Shown in pieces: positions 2,550-62,727 of a stretch of DNA of 64,000 nt. A model generated the notes under the pieces. The model made no database searches. It had not been told where the DNA came from and saw nothing but the letters and a program-made list of their open reading frames with translations. A program made the translations under genes and the position numbers. Positions within the stretch are counted from its first letter, which is position 1. Each line of letters opens with the position of its first letter. The DNA is from Nostocaceae cyanobacterium (lineage in GTDB: Bacteria; Cyanobacteriota; Cyanobacteriia; Cyanobacteriales; Nostocaceae), in contig JASJCY010000028.1 of NCBI GenBank assembly GCA_030065825.1, positions 1 to 64,000 on the forward strand, given 5' to 3'.

Positions 2550-5216
2550 ATGAACCAAAAACCCCCCGTACCCCGTCTAGATTTAGCACCCAAACTCAAG
2601 CGTCCCCTATCCCTGTGGAACCCGTTGGATTATTTGCGCCTTTTGTACTGGGTGTTTTATTTTCCCCAGGCTTTGCGGTGGTATGTGGATACTTTTGGAG
2701 GTGGGTATATTGAGGGTGAGGGAATGAATTGGTCAAACCACATTCAGCGGAATTTGCTTTTTCAAGGGTTGGTTTTGACAGTTGTGACACCGCTGGTTTT
2801 GAGTGGATTTCTACAGCAAATAGGTATTGTAATTGATTGGGTTCGCGTGGCTTTTGCCGTGGCTTCTGGCGTGGCTATTGGCGTGGCTTATGGCGTGGCT
2901 TATGGCGTGGCTTATGGTGTGGCTATTGGCGTGGCTATTAGCGTGGCTTTTGCCGTGGTGGCTATTAGGAATGCTTCTGACGTGGCTATTGGCGTGGCTT
3001 ATGGCGTGGCTATTGGCGTGGCTATTGGCGTGGCTTATGGCGTGGCTATTGGCGTAGCTTCTGGCGTGTTTTATCGCGTGACTTCTGGCATGGTTTATGG
3101 CCTGGCTATTGGCGTGGCTTATAAAAAACTGGATTATGGCGTGGCTATTAGCGTGGCTTTTGCCGTGGCAATATTACGTCTAGAAAACTGGCTGATTAGT
3201 TCACCTTTCAATCTCCGAAATTTTCACAAGAGTAGCTTTCTAATTCCCCGTGTCACTCCGCTACGCTTGCCCTATCTGACTTTACGCTTGCAAAATTGGT
3301 TACAACAGGATTGGGAAACTGGTTTACATAATATTAATCAACTGCTGGCATACACCCTGCAATTTATTCCTGTTGTCCAAGCAGTGAATCGGACACTTGC
3401 TAAAACCCCTCCTGAACAAATTATTTGGCGTATTTCTCGGTTGGCTGAAGTACCTGTTGATTGGGATTTAGTACGTTTTGCTTCTGCTTCTTTAAATATA
3501 AAGCCAAAGTCAGAATTTCTTAGAGGTATTCTTAGAGACATTCCATTTTTACCTGCAAACTGGCGGCGAAGATTAGAGGGTGGTTTGATCGCAGATACTC
3601 GTCTAGATACAGAAGCCCATGCTACTGCTGCTGGTTTCTGGTATCTCCACGAAAAAGAACCAGCTAAAGCAAAAGAGGCTTTTGCAAAGGTGCATTCCCT
3701 CCTCTACGGTAAGGAAATGTATACCCTTGCCCAAACTCTAGCAATCTTTCACGAAGCCCAGGAAATTACTAATATTGCTGCTATCAACCCACCTTCCCCT
3801 CCTTACCAAGGGAATAACACAGAAGGGTTACTACGTCCAAATACTTGGCAAGCCATCGCCAGTCTACATCGCGTCATTGAAGATACCCAACTTGTCCAAC
3901 ACAGCGTATCCCGTGTAACCCGTGCCTTTGCCCTCAACCGTGCCCAAGGAGAACTGACAAACATCCTCAATCATCCCCAAACCCTTCCAGAAGCTGAACG
4001 GGGACTAATCATAGAAATTGCCCAGAATTGGCAAAAAGCCCTTCTACAAGTAGCTGGCGAAGTAGGGGAAATTTCTATTACCAAGCCTGTCCGTAATCCT
4101 TACATTATCGGTGACCCAGTTTTAGGGGAACGCTTCGTAGGAAGGAAAGACGTAATGAGACAGCTAGAAGAACTTTGGGTGACCAGTGAATCCCTACAAT
4201 CTGTAGTTCTCTACGGACATAGACGCATGGGTAAAACTTCCATCCTGCGTAATGCAGCCAAATTCGTAGGTTCTGAAGTAAAGGTAGCTTATATCAACAT
4301 GCTCAATGCTGGCAATATTTCCCAGGAAGTTGGTGAAGTGCTGATAGCGATTTGCGATAGTATTTCTGAAACCCTTAACATTTCACCTCCCACCGATGCA
4401 GATTTGCTCAATCTTCCTTCCCCCACCTTTGAACGCTATTTGAAACGAGTTGTAGACAAGGAATTAATCCCCTCTGAACAAGGTTTAATTATCGCCCTAG
4501 ATGAATTCGAGAAAATCGAAGAACTAATTACAGACGGAAAAATACCTACAAATTTTATGGGGTATCTGCGGGGGTTGGTGCAAATGTCTTCTCAACTCAC
4601 CTTTGCCTTTGCAGGTTTGCACACCTTAGAGGAGATGACAGCAGATTACTTCGACCCCTTCTTTGGTAGCGTCATCCCCATCCATGTTGGGTTCATGGAA
4701 CGTGCAGCTACTCGCCAGATTCTTGCCAACCCTGTAGAAACGCCTGAAGATTTTCCCCTCGACTACACCCCAGAAGCCTTAGATACAATTTATCACCTCA
4801 CCCACGGACAACCATATCTAGTGCAGTTGCTGGGGTTCCAGCTAGTTCGCCGCTACAATGACCAAGTGTTTGAAATGGGACATTCCCGCGACCCAGTTTT
4901 TACGGTGGATGACTTGGAAGCGGTAGTTAACCCTGACTTCTTCAAACGGGGACGATACTATTTTGATGGAGTTTGGAGTCAGGCAGGGCAGGGTGCAGCA
5001 GGGCAACAAATGATACTGCGGCTATTAGCACCTCATCCCCAGGGGTTGAGTTTGGAGGCGATTAACGATGCTTGTACAGAAACTTTAGAAGACCTAAATA
5101 TACAGTCAGCACTAAAGACCCTTCAGCGTCATGATGTAGTCCAGGAAAAGGAAGGACGCTGGCGAATTGTTGTAGAATTGTTTCGCCGTTGGGTGTTAAC
5201 AGTTAACAATTTGTAG
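2550..5216 (+). CDS. ATPase with repetitive hydrophobic N-terminal region
   Basis: This 888-residue protein has three parts. Residues about 85-210 are a low-complexity hydrophobic tract built of GVAYGVAI-type tetrapeptides, probably several membrane-spanning helices rich in small residues. Residues about 220-520 are helical with no clear motif. From about 525 there is an ATPase related to AAA_16/STAND modules, with Walker A GHRRMGKTSIL near 556-566, Walker B LIIALDEFEKI near 643-653, and a C-terminal winged-helix-like segment (ILRLLAPHPQGLSLEAIND). The Walker B DEFEK matches that of the upstream protease-ATPase, so the two probably act together, one soluble and one at the membrane. The gene ends exactly where an 18-copy tandem array begins. 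The ATPase call is firm; membrane topology and conflict-system function are inferences. Confidence 0.82.
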   Translation: MNQKPPVPRLDLAPKLKRPLSLWNPLDYLRLLYWVFYFPQALRWYVDTFGGGYIEGEGMNWSNHIQRNLLFQGLVLTVVTPLVLSGFLQQIGIVIDWVRVAFAVASGVAIGVAYGVAYGVAYGVAIGVAISVAFAVVAIRNASDVAIGVAYGVAIGVAIGVAYGVAIGVASGVFYRVTSGMVYGLAIGVAYKKLDYGVAISVAFAVAILRLENWLISSPFNLRNFHKSSFLIPRVTPLRLPYLTLRLQNWLQQDWETGLHNINQLLAYTLQFIPVVQAVNRTLAKTPPEQIIWRISRLAEVPVDWDLVRFASASLNIKPKSEFLRGILRDIPFLPANWRRRLEGGLIADTRLDTEAHATAAGFWYLHEKEPAKAKEAFAKVHSLLYGKEMYTLAQTLAIFHEAQEITNIAAINPPSPPYQGNNTEGLLRPNTWQAIASLHRVIEDTQLVQHSVSRVTRAFALNRAQGELTNILNHPQTLPEAERGLIIEIAQNWQKALLQVAGEVGEISITKPVRNPYIIGDPVLGERFVGRKDVMRQLEELWVTSESLQSVVLYGHRRMGKTSILRNAAKFVGSEVKVAYINMLNAGNISQEVGEVLIAICDSISETLNISPPTDADLLNLPSPTFERYLKRVVDKELIPSEQGLIIALDEFEKIEELITDGKIPTNFMGYLRGLVQMSSQLTFAFAGLHTLEEMTADYFDPFFGSVIPIHVGFMERAATRQILANPVETPEDFPLDYTPEALDTIYHLTHGQPYLVQLLGFQLVRRYNDQVFEMGHSRDPVFTVDDLEAVVNPDFFKRGRYYFDGVWSQAGQGAAGQQMILRLLAPHPQGLSLEAINDACTETLEDLNIQSALKTLQRHDVVQEKEGRWRIVVELFRRWVLTVNNL
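2848..3172 (+). repeat. In-gene 12-base tandem repeats encoding GVA(Y/I)
   Basis: Within the ATPase gene the DNA repeats the 12-mer ggcgtggcttat or ggcgtggctatt about 20 times, with short interruptions near 2960-2980 and 3120-3138. Each unit encodes Gly-Val-Ala-Tyr or Gly-Val-Ala-Ile. The near identity at DNA level points to recent expansion by slippage or recombination and predicts copy-number differences between strains. Confidence 0.85.
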
Positions 5217-5682
5217 GGGCGCAATGCTTGCGCCCAAGGTAGGGACACAATTCTTACACCCAAGCTAGGGACACAATCCTTGCACCCAAGGTAGGGGGAC
5301 ACAATTATTACGCCCAAGGTAGGGACACAATTATTACACCCAAAGTAGGGACACAACACTTGCGCCCAAAGTAGGGATACAATCCTTGCGCCCAAGGTAG
5401 GGACACAATTCTTACACCCAAGGTAGGGACACAATACTTGCGTCCAAAGTAGGGACACAATCCTTGCACCCAAGCTAGGGACACAATCCTTACACCCAAG
5501 GTAGGGACACAATCCTTACGCCTAAGGTAGGGGCGCAATGCTTGCGCCCAAGGTAGGGACACAATTCTTACACCCAAGGTAGGTACACAATTCTTACACT
5601 CAAGCTAGGGGGACACAATTCTTACACCCAAAGTAGGGACACAATACTTGCGCCTAAGGTAGGGACACAATCCTTACGCCCA
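5214..5682. repeat. 18-copy tandem array of a 26-base palindromic unit
   Basis: About 18 head-to-tail units run from the stop of the ATPase gene. The consensus is gtagggacacaattcttac followed by acccaag. Units 4 and 16 are 28 bases long because of an extra gg. Units 1 and 13 have the form with perfect hairpin arms, gggcgcaa and ttgcgccc, a sequence that also occurs singly at 42958-42980. Most unit-to-unit differences are G/A changes on this strand. The spacing is uniform with no unique spacers, so it is not a CRISPR array. Open frames across it on the minus strand are artefacts of the periodicity. Confidence 0.9.
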
Positions 5683-5857
5683 GTTTAATTTTTAATTTTT
5701 AATTGTTTTAGTCTTGAGTCCTGAGTGGGAAAAATAATACTCAGTTACTCAGGACTTTTGCTATTTATAGGGATTTTTGGTAGTGAATACTGCCTTTTCT
5801 TGAAAAGACAATGCAGCAAAAGTGACAGTAACCAAGCAACCCAGAAAGTAAAACTGC

Positions 5858-8800
5858 ATGGAACTCACAAATAACTTTTTGACCAGAAACAGAAGCATTT
5901 GGCAACAAATATTACAGTCGATAAATCTCCGACCGGAAGAGAGCAAACGTACCTTCCTTATGTTTGTTATTTACACAATTATCTCTGTAGGAATACGGTG
6001 GGCAGAACGCAGTACAGACGCAGAATTGGTATCTAATTTTGGGGCTTATTATCTGCCTCAGTTTTATATCGGTAGTGCAGTTATGGGCATCCTGGTGGTT
6101 TTTGTTTACTCCTGGTTGCAAAGGAATTTTGCCCTACGTTGGGTAATTGTGGCGATCGCACCCATGATGGCAATACCTTTATTGTTGTTTCACTGGGGAA
6201 TACAAATTCCAGGTCAGGAAGGAAAGACTTTACTGATGCTGCGGCTATGGCTAGATGCGATTTATGTTGCGAATGAACTCAACACAGCCATTGCAGCTAA
6301 CCAGCTATTTAATATTAGGGAGATTAAGCGCACTTATCCTCTAATTAGCAGTGGGTTTTTAGTAGCTCAAATATTTAGCGGCTTTAGTTTATCTTGGCTA
6401 CTCAATATCCTGAGTTTACATAACCTGATTTTGATTACTGGAGTGCTAATTGTATTTGGATCAACGATTCTGCTATATTTAAGTCGGAACTATCCACAGG
6501 CTTTTCCCAACTTTTCCCAACCAAAATTTAAGGAAGTAGATTATTCCACAAAACGTCGGTTATCTCGACCTCTGCAACAATATGTAGGGCTATCAATCGC
6601 TTTATTTGCTTTGTTGCATATTATTGGCATGTTAATTGAGTTCCAGTATTTTAGTCAAGTAGAATCCAAATTTCAGGGTGGTAATCGCGAAGAAATTGCC
6701 AGATTTTTGGGATTGTTGGATGCAATTGTGGGAATATCTGCCTTAGGAACCCAGTGGTTTTTATCCAGTCGGGTGTTAGAACGTATAGGGGCATTTTTCA
6801 CCATCGCTATTTTGCCAGCCAGTATGGTGCTACTACCAATGGTAATTGCTGTTATGAGTTTATTCCCTGGATTGGACTTTGGACAAAACTTTTTTTGGGG
6901 TTTAGTTATCTTCCAGTTTTGGGACGACTTACTGCGCTATACTTTCGTCGCTAATAACGGTACTTTACTGTTTCAACCCATACCAGATAAAATTCGCAGT
7001 TACCTACAGACATTATCTGATGGTATTGGTACAGCCATAGGTGCCTTGACATCAAGTGTGATTATCTTGGGTAGTTCTTTACTGGGAGCATATCTAGCAG
7101 TACCTGATAGCTTAAAAATTTGGGTTTTGCCGATTCTAACCGCCATTATTGGTGGTATCTGCTTGAAAGTGATTTTGATAGTGCGATCGCGCTATGTCGA
7201 TTTGCTAGTGTTAAGTGCACAAAGGGGTCAATTAAGTGTTACAAATGTAGACTTACGAGCATTTAAACAGGCAGTTATTAAAACATTAGTAGAAAAAAAT
7301 ACCTATCTCGACCAACATTCTCAGAAAAGCCTATATCAAGATAAACTTTCTTGTATCGATTTGTTATCCCACATCGATCCTAAAGGAGTAGGAGAAGTTT
7401 TAGCACCCCTGTTAGATCAGTTACCTCCCCTTTTGCAGTACAAAAGTTTGGAAGCAATGCTCAAGCAAGGTGCAAATCCCGCTTATATACCTACAATCCA
7501 GACTTTGTTAGCAATACCTAAACACTTACTAGCACCCGAAGTTTTTGCCCTTGGTTTACGCTACATTTGGCTAGCTGGGGCAAATCCCGATTTAAGGAAA
7601 TTAGAACAGTATCTCAACTTTGATCAACATTCCTTGATTCGGGGAACTGCTGCTGCATTATTATTGCGTGAGGGTTCCATTAAGCAAAAATTGATTGCTA
7701 CCAAAGTCTTGGGACGAATGCTCAATCACAAACAAGAACGGGAACGGGTAAATGGTGTTAAAGTCCTTAAGGAAGCAGTATATTTACAAGCATTGCGAAT
7801 TCATATTCCTAATTTGTTACAAGACAAGTCTTTAGAGGTGCGTCTAGCAGTACTAGAATTAATTGCAGCCACTCGTTTAGAGGAATATTATCAAGCCCTA
7901 GTCATGGGACTTTGTTACAAATCAACCCGGAATATAACTATGGAAATATTAGTAAAATTGGAGGATGAAATTTTAGCAAATGTAATCAAATTTGCAACAG
8001 ATATTTACCAACCACAAGTAGCGCGGATGTACGCTTGGCGTACTATTGGTCAAATCCCTTCTACAGAAGCTCTTAATACATTATGGATGCATTTAGAAGC
8101 CTCTGGAACCAATAATAGAAATTATATTCTCCGGGCAATGCTTCGACGACATCAAAAAGAAGGAATTGTAGGTTTGGTAGACAATTGGCATCAACGTGTA
8201 GTTGAAAAGTTAATTATTGAGGAATTATGTTTATTAGGAGAGATTTACGCTGCTTACATAGATTTTCAGGAACAAGAATCTCTAGATATTTCTCAATCAA
8301 ATTGGCAGGTTATTAATGTCAGTAACTTGCTGCAACAAGCCCTAATAGAATTAGAAAGGGATGTCAAAGAACGATTGCTGCTAATATTAAAGTTAGTTTA
8401 TCCCCAAGAAATAATTCAAGCAGCAACCTTTAATCTACTATCATCTTCAGGGGTAAATATAGCCCAAGGTTTAGAAATCTTAGATACCCTAAATTTACGT
8501 TTTAAATCCGTATTCCTCAACATTTTAGATCGACGATCACCCCAAGAAAAACTACAAACTCTCATAGTCGCTGGACTAGTTGATTCTCAACCCATGTCTG
8601 TTGGTAATCGCACCCGCAGATTGTTAGAACAGCATCGTTATCTTTCCGACTGGTGTTTAGCCTGCTGTTTCCATTTTGCAAAAGTTGCTCGTATCCGCTT
8701 AACTATAGAACAGGTATTGGATAATCTCCGTCATCCCACAGGTTTTGTTCGCGAAGCTGCCATCGCTTACTTACAGGTAGCAGCACTAAATACTTTGCTA

Positions 8801-11257: not shown

Positions 11258-14200
11258 TTAATTTCCTCCCTTGCTCGAAGAAATCCCGCCAACATCTATC
11301 CTTTCGGCTGTGATGCTAATAATATTACCCACATCGCTATGAGTAACCTGGACGCTGATAGTGCGAATCTTCTCTTGTGCTTCCCCTTTGACTTCTTCCC
11401 AACCCTGTTGCGGTAAACCCTTACCACCACGCAACAATGCCACGGGGAAGTCTCCTTCTGTGCTTAAGTCAAAGCAAGGGATTTGTTCGGCTTGATATTC
11501 CTGTTGTGTGGTTGCGGGAACGCTTTTACTCAGGTAGTTCATTAAATGGGAAACCTTGACGACTTTATCCCCTGGTTGATTTCCTGCACCTTGCAATGCT
11601 TCGAGGAAATGGTAAGTGTAGATACTCATTGTGTCGTCACGGCGAACCCAAGATGATTGTTCTTCGGTGGAGGAGGTGAAAACTACTCTTCCCGTACCTT
11701 GTTTTAAGTCCTCAATGATGGTTTTGGGTAAAGCTGTTTGGGTAAAACCTTTGGGTATTGGTGAACGTTTGGTTTTCCCTGTATCATCCTTTGATGTCGC
11801 CATTCCTTGAGCGTGACAACTATCTATAATTACTAATAATTTCTTGGCTGGAATTTCCCGTAATGTTTGCTTAAAGGTGTTTGCGGGGAGTGCTGTGTTG
11901 GGGATATCTGTTCTGTCAGTATCGTGGGGGATGAGGTAGTAATCTCCAGATTGATGTAAGAAACCATGACCGGAATAGAACACTAGTATAGTTGCTTCTG
12001 GGTCATTTTCCGCTTGGTGTTTGAGCCAGTTTAAAGCTTCTAAAATTTTGGTTTTGGTAGCGTTTGCGTCGTGGAGGAGACGAATGTGTTGGCGATCGTC
12101 GATGTAACCGCATAGGTTGGAGTCGGTGAGGAGAGATTTTAGTGCTTGAATATCTTTAACTGTGACTGGTAGGGATAATTTGGTTTCTTCGCATTCACCG
12201 ACACCGATGAGTAAGGCATAGTTGTGGGAGGTGGATTTGGACATGGTGGGTTTGGGGATGGGTTTGTAGTATTTGAGGTGTTCTTGGTTTTCTTCTAGTG
12301 CATCTATAGCTTGAGAGGCATTTTGTCCGTTATTTAAGTTGAGAAAGTGTTTGGTATTTAAAAGTTGAATTAACCCTGTTACTGCGGCATCAGATTTGAT
12401 TTCTCCCAAGGCTTCTGCCGCACTATCACGCACATCAGAGTCTTCATCTTCTAGAAGTTGAATTAACTCTCGTACTGCGGCATCAGATTTGATTTCTCCC
12501 AAGGCTTCTGCCGCACTATCACGCACATCGGAGTCTTCATCTTGCAGAAGTTTAATTAATCCTGGTACTGCGGCATCAGATTTGATTTCTCCCAAGGCTT
12601 CTGCCGCAGTATAACGCACATCGGAGTCTTCATCTTGCAGAAGTTTAATTAACCATGGTACTGCGGCATCAGATTTGATTTCTCCCAAGGCTTCTGCCGC
12701 AGTATAACGCACATCGGAGTCTTCATCTTGCAGAAGTTTAATTAACCATGGTACTGCGGCATCAGATTTGATTTTTACCAAGGCAGATACCGCAGTATCA
12801 CGCACATCAGAGTCTTCATCTTCCAGAAGTTTAATTAACCATGGTACTGCCTTCTTAGATTTGATTTTTCCCAAGGCAGATGCCGCAGTATCACGCACAT
12901 AGAAGTATTCATCTTCCAGAAGTTTAATTAACCCTGGTACTGCCTTCTTAGATTTGATTTTTCCCAAGGCAGATGCCGCAGTATCACGCACATAGGAGTA
13001 TTCATCTTCCAGAAGTTTAATTAACCCTGGTACTGCGGCATTAGATTTGATTTTTCCCAAGGCAGATGCCGCAGTATCACGCACAGAGGAGTCTTCATCT
13101 TGCAGAAGTTTAATTAATCCTGGTACTGCGGCATCAGATTTGATTTTTCCCAACTCTTCTGCCGCAGTATCACGCACATCAGAGTCTTCATTTTCCAGAA
13201 GTTGAATTAACCCTGGTACTATGACATCAGATTTGATTTTTTCCAAGGCTTCTGCCGCAGTATAACGCACATAGGAGTATTCATCTTCCAGAAGTTTAAT
13301 TAACCATGGTACTGCCGCATCAGATTTGATTTTTCCCAAGGCAGACGCCGCAGTATAACGCACATAGGAGTCTTCATCTTCCAGAAGTTTAATTAACCAT
13401 GATACTGCCTCATTAGATTTGATTTTTCCCAAGGCAGACGCCGCACGAGAACGCACATAGAAGTATTCATCTTCCAGAAGTTTAATTAACCATGGTACTG
13501 CCGCATTAGATTTGATTTTCCCCAAGGCAGACGCCGCACGAGAACGCACATAGAAGTATTCATCTTCCAGAAGTTTAATTAACCATGGTACTGCCTTCTT
13601 AGATTTGATTTTTCCCAAGGCAGATGCCGCACGAGAACGCACATAGGAGTCTTCATCTTCCAGAAGTTTAATTAACCATGATACTGCCTCATTAGATTTG
13701 ATTTTTCCCAAGGCTTCTGCCGCACGAAAACGCACATAGGAGTATTCATCTTCCAGAAGTTTAATTAACCATGGTACTGCCGCATTAGATTTGATTTTCC
13801 CCAAGGCTTCTGCCGCAGTATAACGCATAGAGGAGTCTTCATCTTCTAGAAGTTTAATTAACCATGGTACTGCCGCATTAGATTTGATTTTCCCCAAGGC
13901 AGATGCCGCAGTATTACGCACATAGGAGTCTTCATCTTGCAGAAGTTTAATTAACCATGGTACTGCCGCATCAGATTTAATTTTTCCCAAGGCAGATGCC
14001 GCAGTATCACGCACAGAGGAGTCTTCATCTTGCAGAAGTTTAATTAATCCTGGTACTGCGGCATCAGATTTGATTTTTCCCAAGGCAGATGCCGCAGTAT
14101 CACGCACATCAGAGTCTTCATTTTCCAGAAGTTGAATTAACCCTGGTACTATGACATCAGATTTGATTTTTTTCAAGGCAGATGCCGCAGTATCACGCAC

Positions 14201-56681: not shown

Positions 56682-56813
56682 TCACTTGCGTGAGGGATCT
56701 AGATGAATACGAAAAAAGTCTCGATCTGTTGCTTCCTGTAAACCTTGATTAGCAATTGTCCAAGATACATCAATGGTTTGCCCCCTAATTGCTTCTGTTG
56801 GGGCATTAACCCT
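56682..56813 (-). pseudogene. CARDB-domain fragment
   Basis: On the minus strand one frame reads VNAPTEAIRGQTIDVSWTIA then NQGLQEATDRDFFRIHL before a stop. That is the beginning of a CARDB-type Ig-like repeat (GQ-x-[IV]-x-V-[ST]-W-T-[IV]-x-N-Q-G). There is no start codon, and a stop lies two codons upstream. It is probably the remains of a larger surface or adhesion gene, or of a duplicate of a neighbour's Ig-like domain. Confidence 0.45.
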
Positions 56814-57100: not shown

Positions 57101-57580
57101 CTATCTTTGTACAACGGTGTGCTGAATTGGATTTATGTGAACTAGTGGGATGCCTGACGCAATTGCATAGGCAACAATATCTCCAGTTCCTCCTTTGCCT
57201 CTAGCTGGTTTTCCATCCCAAACGGCTATAATGCGATCAGATAATTCAACAATACGCTGCCCAGCAGCGAGATAGGCATCTTCGTCAGTCCCCGGTGTTG
57301 TGAGTATCTCAAATGAAACTAGTTTCAGAAGTTGTTGATAGATGTGAAGATCGTCTCCATCAAAGGTTCTTTGGTAATTAGCAAACGGAATAATGGCATG
57401 AACACTGCCACCACGCTGAAGGACTAATTTGGCAAAGAGTTGATCCGCACCAATAGCAAGGGAACTCACAGCAGTTACAGGTGGAGTAATGGTATCTAAT
57501 TCACAATTCATAGACTCTTCTACCCACTTCCACATAGATGGATTAGGTAAGCGCTGATGTCCAGTTATCCCAATAATCAT
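57101..57580 (-). CDS. SLOG-like (YpsA/DprA-type) nucleotide-binding protein
   Basis: This 159-residue Rossmann-like protein begins MIIGITGHQRLPN, has VTAVSSLAIGADQLFAKLVL in the middle, and ends with AVWDGKPARGKGGTGDIVAY before a strand PLVHINP. GHR/GADQ and a GGT loop are typical of the SLOG superfamily, which binds nucleotides or their derivatives and is common in predicted nucleotide-signalling conflict systems. Its start overlaps the caspase stop by 4 bases (ATGA), so the two are translated together. Here it is probably the ligand sensor or an enzyme acting on the signal. Exact ligand unknown. Confidence 0.78.
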   Translation of the reverse strand: MIIGITGHQRLPNPSMWKWVEESMNCELDTITPPVTAVSSLAIGADQLFAKLVLQRGGSVHAIIPFANYQRTFDGDDLHIYQQLLKLVSFEILTTPGTDEDAYLAAGQRIVELSDRIIAVWDGKPARGKGGTGDIVAYAIASGIPLVHINPIQHTVVQR

Positions 57581-58530
57581 ATTTTTTCCTTGTGGGCAAG
57601 GCTCCAGTAGAATTTGCCTAGAGGTGTCAGCTTACATGATTTTGAGTTAATTGCTGCAAAATACATATGCTCTTCACCAATCGGCTCAATAAGGTGTGCA
57701 GCACGTAACTTTTGAAGATGCTCAAAAATTTCCTCATGTTTAAGGTTGTGAGGCTCAGCATCAGGTTCATAGGAGGGATCTAGGGAATATTCATCGCTTG
57801 GTGAAGAGAAGTATGTTGGCAGGAGCCGCAAAATCTTTAACGGTACAGATGGGATGCAATTGCGAATCGAGACAAGTTTGGAAACATGTGATTTGAAGAG
57901 GGGACGTTGATCCCAAGCACCTAGAATTTGATCAACGTAGGCATAAGCACTAGGAACGGTAACTTTGCCACAGACATCTGCCGCTCCACCCTCTAATGCA
58001 CCGCATATGAGAGAGGTGAATAAACCACCTCCATCCTTCTCTACAGCCGATTCTGTGTCACGACAAGCGCTAAGCACAGACACCCCCTCATTCAGAATTA
58101 CTCTGGCATTATCGACAGATGGAAGCTTTCCGAATGCACCACTGTGGCAGCAGTCAAGAATAATTATTTTCTCTTGAGCTGGTGACTGGTTGGCAAAGGC
58201 TAGTAAATCATTCATACTGACACCTTCATCATACTGTTGCGCATCTGGGGTAACAAGGTATCCGCCTAAACTATTCACTGTACCATGCCCTGAAAAGAAG
58301 AAAAGAGCAATTTCAGCAGACTTTGAGAAGCAAGTTTTCATGGCTTGTCTCAGGCGCTGCTTAGTAATTAAATTGACAGAAGATGAGAGCAACTTTTTAC
58401 ACTCGAAGTTTGGAGAGCCATCGTAGTGGTGCCTCAACAAACTACACATTCGAGTTGCATCGTTAACACAGCCAAACAAAGGTGCATTGGGGTAGCTGTC
58501 AATTCCAACAAGTAATGCTATCCTTGACAT
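57577..58530 (-). CDS. Caspase-like (C14) peptidase with C-terminal winged-helix-like domain
   Basis: The N-terminal 215 residues are a caspase/metacaspase-type peptidase: RIALLVGIDSYPNAPLFGCV, catalytic His in FFFSGHGTVNSLGGYL near 80, and catalytic Cys in IIILDCCHSGAFGKLP near 127. Residues about 255-317 look like a winged helix (EEIFEHLQKLRAAHLIEPIG, KLTPLGKFYWSLA), perhaps an interaction or nucleic-acid-binding part. The open frame begins with TTG at 58542, but an ATG at 58530 has the ribosome binding site ggagg just upstream. The SLOG-like gene overlaps its end, and the CARDB-like and 921-residue genes lie upstream. Death or arrest by proteolysis on nucleotide sensing is an inference. 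Confidence 0.88.
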   Translation of the reverse strand: MSRIALLVGIDSYPNAPLFGCVNDATRMCSLLRHHYDGSPNFECKKLLSSSVNLITKQRLRQAMKTCFSKSAEIALFFFSGHGTVNSLGGYLVTPDAQQYDEGVSMNDLLAFANQSPAQEKIIILDCCHSGAFGKLPSVDNARVILNEGVSVLSACRDTESAVEKDGGGLFTSLICGALEGGAADVCGKVTVPSAYAYVDQILGAWDQRPLFKSHVSKLVSIRNCIPSVPLKILRLLPTYFSSPSDEYSLDPSYEPDAEPHNLKHEEIFEHLQKLRAAHLIEPIGEEHMYFAAINSKSCKLTPLGKFYWSLAHKEKI

Positions 58531-58716
58531 TTGTGCCTCCAAGCAAATGAATTTACTACTCTTTATTTGTACTTAAAAGTTTAGTCAAGTATTTTAAAAT
58601 CAGTATAAATACTGAAGGTATCAACTTGATTGTTAGTAAGTTCTTTTAAATACAATTGTGTATTGCTACGGGAAGCCATCTCCAGTAAGCTTGTGGCGAC
58701 TACATGATTCATATTC

Positions 58717-59181
58717 TTAATCAGTGGCGCTAATTTCCTTGTTTAGACTAATCTCCGAAGCAATTGATTTGGGGTAATGAATATGCACAAGATGGGGAAG
58801 ATCTCCGTCCCATGAGTTTACCCGTATTTTGACTATGTCCTTGGCATTGTCCGTCGCAACCTTCGCCTTGAGATAGAAATAGATGGTCTTGTGTATATCG
58901 TGAGCATTTACAGAAATGGCAGGTGCATTTACTGAACTACCCCACGTCGATCCATCTGTACTTACGTCCGCATAGGTGGTTCCAGTTACCTGGATTACCA
59001 CATTGGTCATTTTCAAGTTACCTTTATTTGAGACTTGAACATTAAACCTAGCTTTTTCCCCAACATTCAGTTTATTACCTGGAGAATCTGTCTCGAAGTC
59101 TGTTATCGAAATGCTAACAAACGTTTTCAAATAATCACCATAATCGTAACCAGGATTTTCAAAGTCATTGATAACGCTCAT
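58717..59181 (-). CDS. CARDB/DUF11-like Ig-fold protein in the caspase locus
   Basis: This 154-residue protein starts MSVINDFENPGYDYGDYLKT, then has a single Ig-like beta-sandwich: GNKLNVGEKARFNVQVSNKG, NLKMTNVVIQVTGTTYADVS and KTIYFYLKAKVATDNAKDIV. This is the pattern of CARDB/DUF11 modules. No signal peptide is present, so it may be a cytosolic binding component. An earlier start at 59229 overlaps the upstream gene, but the ATG at 59181 has a ribosome binding site (gaggaa). Only 10 bases separate it from the 921-residue gene. Function unknown; a recognition or scaffold part is a reasonable guess. Confidence 0.72.
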   Translation of the reverse strand: MSVINDFENPGYDYGDYLKTFVSISITDFETDSPGNKLNVGEKARFNVQVSNKGNLKMTNVVIQVTGTTYADVSTDGSTWGSSVNAPAISVNAHDIHKTIYFYLKAKVATDNAKDIVKIRVNSWDGDLPHLVHIHYPKSIASEISLNKEISATD

Positions 59182-59191
59182 ATTTGTTCCT

Positions 59192-61957
59192 CTATACTTG
59201 ATGTTGTTTATGTTGTATGTGAACATCACTTATCAGTCTGCTAGGTGTTTTTTCGGGATCTGCCAGTTCCCATCTTTTGATACGTCTCCAATCAAGGATC
59301 TCTAATTTTTGCTCTTCTTGTTTCTTATTGATGTCATTTTCTAGTGAAGTTTGAGGTCCTACTAATACCTGAATGAGATATTGCATACCTGTAAAAAGAC
59401 GTCTTTCTTGACCATGTTTTTCTGAACCAGACTCAAGCCTTTCTGAGTCCAACTCAACTCTTAAGTCCTTAATAATATCTTGCAAGATTTCCTCGGATTT
59501 TGATTGAGGATCAAAAAATATATTTTCTCCTTGTGGTGCAGAGCTACTTGTATCTGATTGTTTATCTGATTTCGATTGTTGATCTAATTTCGGTAGCTCA
59601 TCATAAAATACAAATTCATTACTCACACCACCCGTTAACATATGGGTTAATGCAAAAGTTGCAGGACCACTAATTCCATTGAAAATTAGAATATATTTCC
59701 TATTTTTGTCTTCAGGATAAGATGCATTTTCACCTTCTTTTCCATGAAATGGATTAGGTGCAATTACTAAATGTGCAAGAGTAGAGAAAGTAGGGTGTTC
59801 TTCTTTTTTTATTTGGCTTATTTGGTTGTAGAACTTTTCTGGGATTGCTTTGCCATCTGGTATTGATAAAGAAGAAAAACCTCTCTGTTCTTTTTGCTCT
59901 TCCTCACTGCATTTTTCTTGGTAAAAAGTTCTGAAATAGATCTGTTCTTGGATATCTGGCTTTGGCTTAATCTTGATAGCCGTGACCACATTAGGATTTC
60001 GTGATTTTTTAGATGTACCTTGATTTTCATCATTTAGTATTTGTGATTCTTGCCTTTTTGCTTCATCTTGTTTACGAACATATGGATTCAGCCATTTTTC
60101 TTCTCCTTCAAACCATTCTTTTTCTGGTACTTTATAGATTTCTCCCAGTGCAACTTCAGTTAGTGGATTAACATCAGGAGAAGCTATAATGATACAGTTT
60201 TTGTCCTGTAACATTGCTTTTAGGTCTTTGATGTACCTTTCACGTACCTCTAAGAGTTCTTTCTTACGCTGTTCATATTCTGGTTTTTTTTCATCGAAAT
60301 ATTCAAGGTATTTTCTCTTTGATTCTTCATCATATTCTTTCCATTGCTTGTCTATTTTGTCTTGCAGATATCGTTCACGTACCAGTTTAATTTCATATAT
60401 AGGAGATTCAATTGTTGAACGATAATGATGACTTGCAAAATACGAAGTCATTTCTGAAGCTGTTCTAAGATCCCAGTCACCAATCATCTCCCGCACAGCT
60501 GTCCTGCTATGCAATGCACCAGTGAAGATTGAGACTTTTCCCCGTCTTCCCAACATTTCATCCCAGAATATCTTTCTTGACCATTCAGCAAAGTCAGTGA
60601 ATATCATCTGTTCAAGAATTCCTTGAAGCTCTTCCACAAACTCTTTAGGTTCTTCTTCCACAAAAGTCATATGCCAAAGAGCTCTTATATCAAAAGCTAA
60701 ATCGTCAATCTGATCATTTTTATTTTTGATAACTGAAATTGGGATCACATTTTTACCTAAAGCATGGCAATACCCTAACCAAAAATAAGCCATAGGGTCA
60801 TAATCGCCATTTGCTCCAACAGTTCTGATGACTGAACAATATGACTTCTGAATCTCTTCTTGGATATCCTTCAATGTTTTTTTCGGCTGAATTATTTGAG
60901 CATTACGTAAATTTTTTATCAGTTTTACATAGGTTGATATTCCATGTTTTCTCACCTTTTCTTTGTAATCTTTAATCAGATTTTTAAGGCGGTCATTCTG
61001 AGATTCTAAAGATAAAATATCATTTTTATTTTTATGTTTTTTGTTGAGTTTTTTCTTCTTTTCTTGGATATCATCTGAAAGGTTCTTGATTTCTTGTTCT
61101 CCTTTTTGTATTCCCTCCAAAATCTTTTCAATTGCTACATCAATAGCAGATAAAATATGTGTCTTAAACTCCAGTTTAATATCTTCTTCCGCTAACTGAC
61201 GGGCTTCAGCGCTATTCGCTATACCTTCTCTTATAGCTTGATTAGTAGTATTTATAGAGGTTTCCGACTCCATTGATGGTACTGGCTGTTTTAATATAGA
61301 TTTGTATCTATAATCTCCTTCTATCAGCAATATGGATGGTTGAAATGAACCTTCAATAGATAGGGAATTTTGATTTTGCCAAATAAATTGAGAAATCGTA
61401 AATTCTTCTGGCTGAATTTGTTTCAAATCTTGGTAAGGGTAGGCTTTGCAGCCAAAATACTCAGTTATTTTTTTTCCAAATCCAGACTTATAGTGATAAA
61501 TAATAATTATTTTTTGATTAGTTCCATATGCAAGTCCTAACTCATAAAAAACATTAGGGTTAGGCACAGAAATATCAGCTATCACAAAGTTAGACTCTTG
61601 AATTTTCTTACAAATTTTTTCACAGATTACATACCCAGTTTTTCTAACTTTGTCTCCGCGCAATAACTCTACCTTTTTCCCAGTTTCCTTACTACTTTCT
61701 TCAGATTGTATATCTTTTTTACTTGAATAGTATCTTTCTACATAACGCTGGAGGCAGAGTGTTAAAAATGACTCTATATTTGGTCGAAACGGCACAATCA
61801 TAAAACCAGACAATTTCTCTTGTCTTTCTCTAGTATCTAGTTCTCTATCTATAGCCTCCGTATGCACACACCCCTGTCCAGTCATAAAACAAGGGTCAAC
61901 TCTACCATGAGATTGCGTAACTTTCTTGTCAAACTGTAATTTATCTTCTGAGAACAT
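59192..61957 (-). CDS. Large protein with two deoxyribosyltransferase/TIR-like segments, function unknown
   Basis: The 921-residue protein heads the caspase locus. Segment I (about residues 50-185) has a Rossmann-like core, GFMIVPFRPNIESF, ESNFVIADISVPNPNVFYEL then GLAYGTNQKIIIIYHY, the pattern of nucleoside 2-deoxyribosyltransferase/TIR-like sensors with the Glu of FYELG. A coiled coil follows (about 262-345). Segment II (about 360-450) has DYDPMAYFWLGYCHALGKNV and LAFDIRALWHMTF, similar but without the Glu. The rest has KVSIFTGALHSRTAVREMIG, CIIIASPDVNPLTEVALGEI and KYILIFNGISGPATFALTHM, which I cannot assign. A Cys/His-bearing N-terminus (DPCFMTGQGCVH) is unusual. It may sense or process a nucleotide. 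The family as a whole is not one I recognise. Confidence 0.7.
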   Translation of the reverse strand: MFSEDKLQFDKKVTQSHGRVDPCFMTGQGCVHTEAIDRELDTRERQEKLSGFMIVPFRPNIESFLTLCLQRYVERYYSSKKDIQSEESSKETGKKVELLRGDKVRKTGYVICEKICKKIQESNFVIADISVPNPNVFYELGLAYGTNQKIIIIYHYKSGFGKKITEYFGCKAYPYQDLKQIQPEEFTISQFIWQNQNSLSIEGSFQPSILLIEGDYRYKSILKQPVPSMESETSINTTNQAIREGIANSAEARQLAEEDIKLEFKTHILSAIDVAIEKILEGIQKGEQEIKNLSDDIQEKKKKLNKKHKNKNDILSLESQNDRLKNLIKDYKEKVRKHGISTYVKLIKNLRNAQIIQPKKTLKDIQEEIQKSYCSVIRTVGANGDYDPMAYFWLGYCHALGKNVIPISVIKNKNDQIDDLAFDIRALWHMTFVEEEPKEFVEELQGILEQMIFTDFAEWSRKIFWDEMLGRRGKVSIFTGALHSRTAVREMIGDWDLRTASEMTSYFASHHYRSTIESPIYEIKLVRERYLQDKIDKQWKEYDEESKRKYLEYFDEKKPEYEQRKKELLEVRERYIKDLKAMLQDKNCIIIASPDVNPLTEVALGEIYKVPEKEWFEGEEKWLNPYVRKQDEAKRQESQILNDENQGTSKKSRNPNVVTAIKIKPKPDIQEQIYFRTFYQEKCSEEEQKEQRGFSSLSIPDGKAIPEKFYNQISQIKKEEHPTFSTLAHLVIAPNPFHGKEGENASYPEDKNRKYILIFNGISGPATFALTHMLTGGVSNEFVFYDELPKLDQQSKSDKQSDTSSSAPQGENIFFDPQSKSEEILQDIIKDLRVELDSERLESGSEKHGQERRLFTGMQYLIQVLVGPQTSLENDINKKQEEQKLEILDWRRIKRWELADPEKTPSRLISDVHIQHKQHQV

Positions 61958-62406
61958 GATGACATTTTTTACTTCTGAGACACTCTATAAGAATAAGTAA
62001 AAAATATGAGGAAATTGTGAAGACTTACCGTGCTTATTAAAACTTAATTTTATTGATACACATTATTGCCTGTGTCAAACCACCATCGCCTGAAACACTT
62101 ATCAATCAAGCAAAATGAAATTATAGTGTAATCTGCCTGCATCCGTGCATCAGATAAAATATGTAATAAATATTACTGCAATAATTCCTGCTATGGGAAT
62201 TATATTTTTGTTAGGACTTACGCAACTGGTACATTTATAAGCGTAAGGTATGTGACACTCTGATAAATACTGTACGGTAAAGCTCTCTTTTGTAGTCTCA
62301 CGCACCGACCACCAATTTTGACAATATCCTAAGTTCTGTTTGTATCGAGTTTTAGAGGTAATTTATTTTATACAAACTTACACACTGGATGATATAGATA
62401 ATTTTT
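61958..62406. other. Upstream region of the caspase locus, no gene seen
   Basis: AT-rich spacer upstream of the 921-residue gene. It includes the short motif ttaggacttacgcaactgg near 62212, nearly the same as at 291. No clear promoter was found, and no open frame with protein features. Confidence 0.4.
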
Positions 62407-62537
62407 GGCGTTGCTGAATCTAGTTATGAATCTTAAATACAAACCTCACCCCGGCTAAAGCCACCCCTCTCCTTAGTAAGGAGAGGGGAAGGGGGTGAGG
62501 TGTATTTTGTAAATTCATACTCTCATTCAGCAACACC
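62407..62537 (+). mobile_element. Miniature inverted-repeat element, GGCGTTGCTGA family, copy 3
   Basis: Ends ggcgttgctgaat and attcagcaacacc bound a 131-base element that is flanked by the exact 8-base duplication taattttt at 62399-62406 and 62538-62545. The interior differs from copies 1 and 2 and is the cctcaccccggct...ggggtgagg palindrome found elsewhere in the window. That mix suggests composite elements sharing only their ends. Confidence 0.88.
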
Positions 62538-62727
62538 TAATTTTTTATAGCAAAAAACCTTAAAATCCTAGAAGTTAAGAGTTGCCTTTCATAGCAGCGG
62601 TAAGTCTAATGTTTCGCTAGGGCAGTTATGATTGTGGTAAGGATTAACTCTCAAGAAATACATTTTAAAACCCTTATCCAACAAAGCTTTTAGCAAATGA
62701 AGAAAAATGTATTCTTTTCATATATTA

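What the first reader, a model, noticed from the sequence alone, without database searches (positions are those of the whole stretch)
57101..61957. Candidate undescribed caspase-SLOG-deoxyribosyltransferase-like conflict locus
Four minus-strand genes lie tightly in order: a 921-residue protein with two nucleoside-deoxyribosyltransferase/TIR-like segments, a CARDB/DUF11-like protein 10 bases later, a caspase, and a SLOG-like protein overlapping the caspase by ATGA. Each part is typical of nucleotide-centred bacterial immunity or suicide systems, but this combination matches no named system that I know. Proposed logic: the large protein makes or senses a nucleotide signal, SLOG binds it, and the caspase executes. 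The parts are seen in the sequence; the logic is inference.
Basis: partly seen in the sequence, partly recalled or inferred. Interest (0 to 1): 0.85.

Follow-up and report, generated by a model that had tools for sequence, protein, structure and literature searches.

The report
Caspase immunity locus lacking its TIR
In a cyanobacterium, a caspase-like suicide protease and a nucleotide-sensor gene of kinds usually found next to a signal-making TIR gene instead sit next to a different large nucleotide-enzyme-like gene, and the same odd pairing recurs in a second genus, which hints that bacteria can swap the alarm enzyme that triggers caspase-type immunity.

Summary
The four genes exist as described but form two modules. 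(1) Caspase-SLOG (57101-58530, ATGA overlap): the caspase is 39-53% identical to proteases of plasmid TIR-caspase operons (published as type IV Thoeris). In 22 of 23 such loci examined a ThsB-like TIR gene is adjacent; four also carry the SLOG gene. (2) A 921-residue protein with an intact deoxyribosyltransferase/DRHyd-like domain (Glu139), a second copy lacking that Glu and an unassigned C-terminal domain, plus a CARDB/DUF11-like partner; this is a cassette with 86-89% DNA identity to one in a Calothrix MAG of another genus. There too it lies beside caspase-SLOG without TIR, but inverted, and with a caspase of another branch (joint clade rejected, p-AU 0.0086). In 88 family genomes this caspase occurs in exactly the two genomes that carry the cassette. 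In four other loci (Chloroflexota, Bacteroidota) the large protein stands alone. Most likely: a type-IV-Thoeris-like caspase effector whose TIR is replaced by the DRHyd-CARDB cassette. Function is inferred; mere neighbourhood is the main rival. New variant of a known kind.

The parts
59192..61957 (-). 921-aa large protein ('big'): N-terminal Cys-containing motif and DRHyd/nucleoside-deoxyribosyltransferase-like domain, coiled coil, degenerate second copy, C-terminal alpha/beta domain
61433..61810 (-). first DRHyd-like domain (aa ~50-175) with conserved Glu139 (codon 61541-61543) in NVFYELG
   Evidence: PF05014 E=0.0014; PADLOC TIR effector model E=3.8e-6; DNPH1 chains E=0.008-0.04; the Y-E-x-G columns are invariant in the 5 rows of A5
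60902..61165 (-). long helical, probably coiled-coil insert (aa ~265-352), largely absent from the non-cyanobacterial homologues
   Evidence: alignments A1/A5; helices in the (low-confidence) model
60668..60880 (-). second, degenerate DRHyd-like segment (aa ~360-430; FWLGY, Glu lost)
   Evidence: hhalign of segment 1 against segment 2, E=9.3e-5, probability 59%
59558..60550 (-). conserved C-terminal alpha/beta domain of big (aa ~470-800), no significant fold match
58717..59181 (-). 154-aa CARDB/DUF11-like (Ig-fold-like) partner of big
   Evidence: PF01345 E=3.5e-4 for the 170-aa ORF; 82% aa identity over aligned residues to the partner in L009; found in 2 of 217 genomes of the family
58701..62211 (-). 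big-CARDB cassette: DNA conserved with the Calothrix MAG (L009) in two blocks, 58701-60988 (86.4%) and 61064-62211 (88.7%); sharp end 16 nt after the CARDB stop; short further blocks upstream at 62339-62406 and 62541-62566
   Evidence: blastn
57577..58530 (-). caspase-like protease (317 aa) of the TIR-caspase (type IV Thoeris) family; His82, Cys128
   Evidence: PF00656 E=2.8e-18; 53% identity to B. subtilis pBS72 caspase; profile 463 bits; residues
57577..57864 (-). conserved C-terminal domain of this caspase family (aa 223-317)
   Evidence: alignment A4, 18 sequences; 1 of 386 cyanobacterial genomes, 2 of 88 genomes of the family
57101..57580 (-). 159-aa SLOG-like protein, translationally overlapped with the caspase (ATGA)

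Best explanation
The locus is a composite abortive-infection system. Downstream module: a caspase-like protease and a SLOG nucleotide-binding protein that descend from TIR-caspase-SLOG operons (type IV Thoeris with an added SLOG gene) but lack the TIR gene. Upstream module: a horizontally moving two-gene cassette (DRHyd-like large protein plus CARDB-like partner). Proposed working: the large protein, perhaps through its C-terminal domain and/or the CARDB partner, senses infection; its Glu139 DRHyd domain cleaves an N-glycosidic bond of NAD+ or a nucleotide and yields a signal; SLOG (or the caspase C-terminal domain) binds the signal; the caspase then degrades cell proteins. Shown here: gene content, family membership of the caspase, absence of the TIR, recurrence of the pairing in a second genus with a different caspase branch and orientation, intact catalytic residues. 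Inferred: that the large protein replaces the TIR, that it makes a signal, and that the locus defends against phage.
For: Caspase family: 22 of 23 plasmid loci examined with a full-length caspase have the ThsB-like TIR adjacent (profile; the TIRs of L043, L047 and L068 also pass PF08937); 4 of 23 also carry the SLOG gene (L043, L044, L046, L047; these four were reached through SLOG hits), one (B. subtilis pBS72, L047) with a caspase/SLOG overlap like the one here. A profile of 17 such TIRs finds nothing at E<1 in the 64-kb window or in L009 with filters off, and the whole draft genome has ThsB_TIR matches only inside two ~1400-aa frames. Cassette: window 58701-62211 matches L009 9440-5700 in two blocks at 86-89% DNA identity, dS 0.14 for big, although the genomes are of different genera. 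L009 also has caspase-SLOG without TIR, convergent with the cassette. The two caspases are not sisters: window with B. subtilis (88/81, not starred), L009 with Rhizobium/Agrobacterium TIR-caspase-SLOG (100/99), p-AU 0.0086. Co-occurrence in the family: cassette partner in 2 of 217 genomes, caspase in 2 of 88, the same two; leaving out the window genome as the discovery case, about 1 in 87 (by hand) for presence alone, before adjacency. Exchangeable parts around this SLOG: Novosphingobium L045 has TIR - membrane protein (8xMP, E=6.9e-32) - SLOG without caspase; IMG/VR contig L068 has a DUF4231/SLATT membrane gene plus SLOG convergent with TIR-caspase. Published work places TIR, DRHyd and SLOG in one class of nucleotide-processing or -binding domains (PMC9503650, passages).
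Against: Only two instances of the pairing. In Chloroflexota and Bacteroidota the large protein stands without caspase, SLOG or CARDB relatives (4 of 4 loci: L010/L120, L011, L012, L106; L012 is a 5.8-kb contig), so it can work without a caspase. SLOG relatives are not tied to the caspase either: of 8 SLOG plasmid loci fetched, 4 lack this caspase (L045, L048, L049, L050). The modules are separated by 186 nt here and are convergent in L009, so they are not one operon there. The L009 contig ends about 2.1 kb beyond the caspase, and its genome has an unlinked 173-aa ThsB_TIR frame (30.6 bits with my TIR profile). Domain assignments of big are below Pfam cut-offs; comparison with the ThsB-like TIRs is weak (hhalign E=0.028, probability 1.8%). 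The AF2 models were poor (mean pLDDT 47.5 and 56.4). dN/dS of big 0.55 shows only mild purifying constraint. The L009 caspase sits on a long branch, so its placement is uncertain, and SLOG trees do not separate the two (p-AU 0.319).
Confidence: 0.45

Rival explanations
1. Neighbours only: the caspase-SLOG pair is an orphaned or decaying TIR-caspase system and the big-CARDB cassette is an independent conflict or other gene pair that happened to land beside it, perhaps because such genes gather at the same sites.
For: Big stands alone in 4 of 4 non-cyanobacterial loci; sharp cassette boundary, different relative orientation and 186-nt gap; both loci lack the TIR expected for this caspase, and the window genome has no small TIR of that kind.
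Against: Both reading frames of the caspase-SLOG pair are intact with His82/Cys128 and the 4-nt overlap; the two rare features occur in the same 2 of 88 genomes of the family, side by side, with different caspase branches. By inspection of the ORF lists only, the flanks in the window look like exopolysaccharide genes and those in L009 mainly metabolic, not an obvious defence island; I did not scan the flanks with a defence library.
Confidence: 0.35
2. Caspase-SLOG is a self-sufficient two-gene system: SLOG itself binds a nucleotide that changes on infection (or makes one) and switches the caspase on; big-CARDB is unrelated.
For: The ATGA overlap suggests a stoichiometric pair; SLOG of the YpsA-like clade is proposed to sense cADPR-type signals or act on nucleotides (PMC9503650, passages); TIR is absent beside both cyanobacterial pairs.
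Against: The 4 plasmid loci with caspase and SLOG, and L068, all keep the TIR. L067 cannot be judged: its SLOG and caspase are 3.6 kb apart on opposite strands and the caspase is cut by the end of the stretch held.
Confidence: 0.15
3. An unlinked TIR supplies the signal in trans, for example from the ~1400-aa ThsB_TIR-containing proteins of this genome.
For: The genome holds four ThsB_TIR matches in two ~1400-aa frames; the Calothrix MAG holds a 173-aa ThsB_TIR frame elsewhere.
Against: These match the profile of the caspase-linked TIRs only weakly (42.5 bits or less in the own genome, 30.6 for the 173-aa frame, against 122-187 bits for the adjacent TIRs); nothing links them to this locus.
Confidence: 0.05

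Closest known systems
Type IV Thoeris (TIR-caspase; Rousset et al. 2025 Science, paper not held; mechanism from a passage of PMC12847820, and recall)
   Same: Caspase-like protease of the family found beside ThsB-like TIRs (39-53% identical to 16 aligned plasmid members; shared C-terminal domain; His/Cys dyad). That these plasmid operons are type IV Thoeris is inferred from the TIR-caspase pairing, not from a comparison with the published proteins
   Different: No TIR gene in the window and no small one of that family in the draft genome; a SLOG gene overlaps the caspase gene; a DRHyd-CARDB cassette lies upstream
TIR-caspase-SLOG loci of plasmids (B. subtilis pBS72, Rhizobium binae p4, Agrobacterium, Methylorubrum; found here)
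   Same: Caspase and SLOG homologues; overlapping genes in L047; SLOG 34-46% identical to the window's
   Different: They keep the ThsB-like TIR; no big-CARDB annotated or seen there
TIR/SLOG loci with membrane proteins (8xMP in L045, DUF4231/SLATT in L068)
   Same: Homologous SLOG; same TIR family
   Different: Membrane protein instead of, or in addition to, the caspase
Nucleoside 2-deoxyribosyltransferase / DRHyd superfamily (DNPH1/Rcl; NDT-like retron effectors, recalled)
   Same: Motif with the conserved Glu (NVFYELG here, GYELG in Rcl) and surrounding pattern
   Different: Embedded in a 661-988-aa multidomain protein with a second copy lacking the Glu and an unassigned C-terminal domain
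Type I Thoeris (ThsB TIR, ThsA SIR2-SLOG; start of the abstract of PMC11204291 in a search listing)
   Same: A SLOG module used with a TIR-made signal
   Different: SLOG is a separate protein and the effector is a caspase, not SIR2

Membership tests
Type IV Thoeris (TIR-caspase) | caspase-like protease of the TIR-linked family with intact His/Cys | tested here: met
   (463 bits); 18-row alignments; the published proteins themselves were not compared
Type IV Thoeris (TIR-caspase) | TIR (ThsB-like) gene in the same operon | tested here: not met
   profile of 17 TIRs, none in window or L009 at E<1 with filters off; genome-wide only in ~1400-aa frames; 22 of 23 relatives have it
Type IV Thoeris (TIR-caspase) | N7-cADPR activates the protease | not testable with these tools
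   needs biochemistry
SLOG (YpsA-like) | match to SLOG family models | tested here: inconclusive
   PF06908 E=0.053 for the window, 0.0023 for L043, both below cut-off; PHROG best hit 'GTP-binding domain' E=1.5e-5, DprA-like E=8e-4
Nucleoside deoxyribosyltransferase / DRHyd | family match over cut-off | tested here: inconclusive
   PF05014 E=0.0014 window, 3e-4 L009, 5.5e-6 L010 (27.0 bits; cut-off 28.8); 0.19 for L106 and none for L011
Nucleoside deoxyribosyltransferase / DRHyd | catalytic Glu in the Y-E-x-G motif | tested here: met
   E139; invariant in the five rows of A5; aligned to YELG of Rcl/DNPH1 for homologue L010; that this Glu is catalytic in DNPH1 is recalled
EACC1-associated caspases (NTP-dependent ternary conflict systems) | NCBIfam NF047832 over cut-off | tested here: not met
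   90.9 bits against cut-off 140
CARDB/DUF11 proteins | PF01345 over cut-off | tested here: not met
   21.3 bits against 24.6; 18.9 for the L009 partner
Named PADLOC defence system | set of genes matching one system | tested here: not met
   only a generic 'caspase' (1.5e-23) and a 'TIR effector' model (3.8e-6) hit; SLOG and CARDB none (PADLOC-DB of 2023)

The most novel reading that the evidence does not exclude
Caspase-type bacterial immunity can be driven by a second kind of alarm enzyme: a DRHyd-domain protein with a CARDB partner replaces the TIR, its product is read by a SLOG protein, and the same cassette has been coupled independently to two different caspase-SLOG pairs.
Probability: 0.35. 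Interest if true: 0.75.

Novelty: new variant of a known kind. Interest (0 to 1): 0.58.

Why it matters
If true, the signal maker of caspase immunity is an exchangeable module, as the effector already appears to be around this SLOG family, and a new nucleotide signal with a SLOG receptor would be expected. It would give a compact system for asking how SLOG and caspase divide sensing and killing. It also shows that some TIR-caspase loci (4 of 23 examined, all four reached through SLOG) carry a SLOG gene whose role I found described in none of the held papers listed by my searches.

Tried and rejected
AlphaFold2 of the whole large protein (5-row alignment) gave mean pLDDT 47.5, too poor for a fold search. 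The C-terminal part (457 residues) of the L010 homologue gave 56.4 overall, with parts of the last domain at 70-90. Foldseek against the PDB: best E=0.066, none at 0.001. VIA-align: BcsB Z 9.1 (rmsd 4.0, 133 aligned), alpha-glucuronidase Z 8.0 (rmsd 3.8, 130 aligned), caspase-3 Z about 5 (rmsd 4.6-4.9, 144-148 aligned); I take these as common alpha/beta arrangements, not kinship. No TIR, SLOG or deoxyribosyltransferase chain is among the 50 rows shown.

Big: no match in plasmids or phages and none confirmed in IMG/VR. EACC1-type caspase rejected by cut-off. In the order, 21 of 291 genomes have a SLOG match, the own one included; the 20 others are 24-32% identical and show no caspase of this family in the roughly 1.5-kb flanks held. 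Promoter and terminator scans found fewer sites than shuffles, so they say nothing about operon limits. hhalign of big's first domain with SLOG: E=0.4, nothing. A TIR remnant between CARDB and caspase: none found. The phylum-wide caspase search scored at most 12 candidates per genome; the family search scored all. The searches with the large protein scored at most 3 or 4 candidates per genome.

Literature: searches list no held paper that I recognised as describing a caspase-SLOG-DRHyd locus; I saw listings, abstract starts and passages only. The type IV Thoeris paper, the 2015 nucleotide-network paper (two ids tried) and the TIR-caspase sponge paper are not held, so they could describe SLOG-bearing variants.
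Full report
What is there. The four minus-strand genes are present at the reported places. The large gene and the CARDB/DUF11-like gene are 10 nt apart, the caspase and SLOG genes overlap by ATGA, and 186 nt separate the two pairs. The caspase matches PF00656 at 2.8e-18 and keeps His82 and Cys128. The large protein has one deoxyribosyltransferase/DRHyd-like domain with Glu139 and a second copy in which that Glu is Leu, plus a conserved C-terminal domain without a confident fold match. Its Pfam score is below the cut-off.

The caspase-SLOG pair has a clear origin. tblastn of the SLOG protein finds 40 plasmid records, and of the caspase 97, of which 43 cover at least 80% of the query. I fetched 23 loci with a full-length caspase (4 through SLOG hits, 19 through caspase hits; the other 20 of the 43 were not fetched). 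In 22 of 23 a ThsB-like TIR gene is adjacent; the exception, L128, has weaker TIR matches (52.7 and 30.7 bits) on the other strand. This is the TIR-caspase arrangement known as type IV Thoeris (passage in PMC12847820; original paper not held). SLOG is a further gene in the 4 loci reached through SLOG and in 0 of the 19 others, within the 2-3 kb flanks taken. Four more SLOG loci were fetched and not counted above because they lack this caspase: Novosphingobium L045, two Streptomyces (L048, L049) and Caballeronia L050. In L045 the same TIR and SLOG flank an 8xMP membrane protein; in IMG/VR contig L068 a DUF4231/SLATT gene with SLOG is convergent with TIR-caspase. So SLOG is combined with different effectors.

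The window lacks the TIR. A profile built from 17 of these TIRs finds nothing in the window or in L009 at E<1 with filters off. The genome (98% complete, 313 contigs) has ThsB_TIR matches only within two frames of about 1400 aa.

The large protein. Among public genome contigs 4 relatives were found: a Calothrix MAG (79%), Anaerolineales (40%), Saprospiraceae (29%) and another Bacteroidetes (29%, split into two frames); a fifth came from genome G625. Relatives along the whole length are rare: 1 of 291 genomes of the order, the own one, with 5 others matching a part only; 2 of 247 in the phylum of G293, with 48 others matching a part only; 1 of 251 in that of G292, with 19 others matching a part only; 1 of 216 in the family of G291, the Calothrix MAG itself, with 9 others matching a part only; the window genome is not among the matches shown there. 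The partial matches cover mostly the N-terminal domain. The four non-cyanobacterial loci have no caspase, SLOG or caspase-type TIR by my profiles and no CARDB relative better than E=0.098.

The cassette. DNA of window 58701-62211 aligns to L009 in two blocks at 86.4 and 88.7% and stops 16 nt after the CARDB stop. dS for big is 0.14 and dN/dS 0.55, although the genomes belong to different genera of one family, so recent horizontal movement is likely. Next to it L009 has a caspase-SLOG pair without TIR, but convergent rather than in line; the contig ends about 2.1 kb beyond. That caspase is only 39% identical to the window's and groups with Rhizobium/Agrobacterium TIR-caspase-SLOG proteins (100/99), whereas the window's groups with B. 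subtilis pBS72 (88/81, not starred); holding the two together is rejected (p-AU 0.0086), with the caution that L009 has a long branch. The SLOG tree cannot decide (p-AU 0.319).

Association. In the family of 217 genomes the CARDB-like partner occurs in 2. In 88 of these genomes, covering 56 genera, the caspase C-terminal domain occurs in the same 2; G1114 of that search is taken to be the Calothrix MAG because contig and coordinates equal those of G291. In a phylum sample of 386 genomes only the own one had it. Leaving out the discovery genome, the chance that the one other cassette genome is also the one caspase genome is about 1 in 87, before counting adjacency. The number of events is small, and joint transfer followed by caspase exchange is possible.

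Mechanism. TIR, DRHyd and SLOG are described as one class of Rossmannoid domains that make, process or sense NAD-derived and other nucleotides (PMC9503650, passages), and a related TIR-like family (DUF4062) was recently reported as NADase (PMC13174449, preprint, start of abstract and passages). A DRHyd enzyme taking over the TIR's place is therefore plausible, with SLOG or the caspase's own C-terminal domain as receptor. I put this at 0.45 against 0.35 for mere neighbourhood.

Verdict. It is not a categorically new system: half of it is a TIR-caspase-SLOG derivative. It is a new variant in which the TIR is missing and a rare DRHyd-CARDB cassette stands beside the caspase-SLOG pair in two genera.

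Noticed in passing
window 62212-62338: 127-bp insertion relative to L009 5700/5704 upstream of big, perhaps a MITE; a 26-bp piece of its end (62211-62236) also occurs at L009 11642-11667. No inverted repeat of 12 nt or more was found in 62150-62420.
   Followed up: partly
window 56690-56790 (-): A short non-ORF stretch that seems to read like a CARDB-type fragment (by eye, untested), next to the caspase-SLOG pair.
   Followed up: no
window 11462-12223 (-): Another caspase-domain gene (1676-aa frame) in the same window; the genome has 10 caspase-domain matches.
   Followed up: no
L119 (G292 C78), 3855-8116: Two ThsB-like TIR genes, a gene that looks like a membrane protein and a 421-aa DRHyd-domain gene close together in the Anaerolineales genome: perhaps a Thoeris-like island that also mixes TIR and DRHyd.
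   Followed up: no
L068 3457-5856: DUF4231/SLATT membrane gene plus SLOG convergent with TIR-caspase on an IMG/VR contig.
   Followed up: partly
L052, L059, L060, L062, L125, L126, L127, L129: A small (about 90-100 aa) unnamed gene directly follows the caspase in these 8 TIR-caspase plasmid loci; other loci have a second TIR or a metallophosphoesterase nearby.
   Followed up: no
L012 3705-5683: The large-protein homologue is split into two frames, by frameshift or assembly error.
   Followed up: no
L106 5518-6555: The large-protein homologue of G625 stands next to a RhuM-family gene (PF13310 E=6.5e-113).
   Followed up: no
window 59192-61957, N-terminal domain of big: PHROG families 26406 and 3634 (unknown function) match the N-terminal domain of the window's large protein at 5.1e-16 and 1e-11 and those of three homologues at 1e-10 to 2e-18, so viruses of prokaryotes carry related domains.
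   Followed up: no
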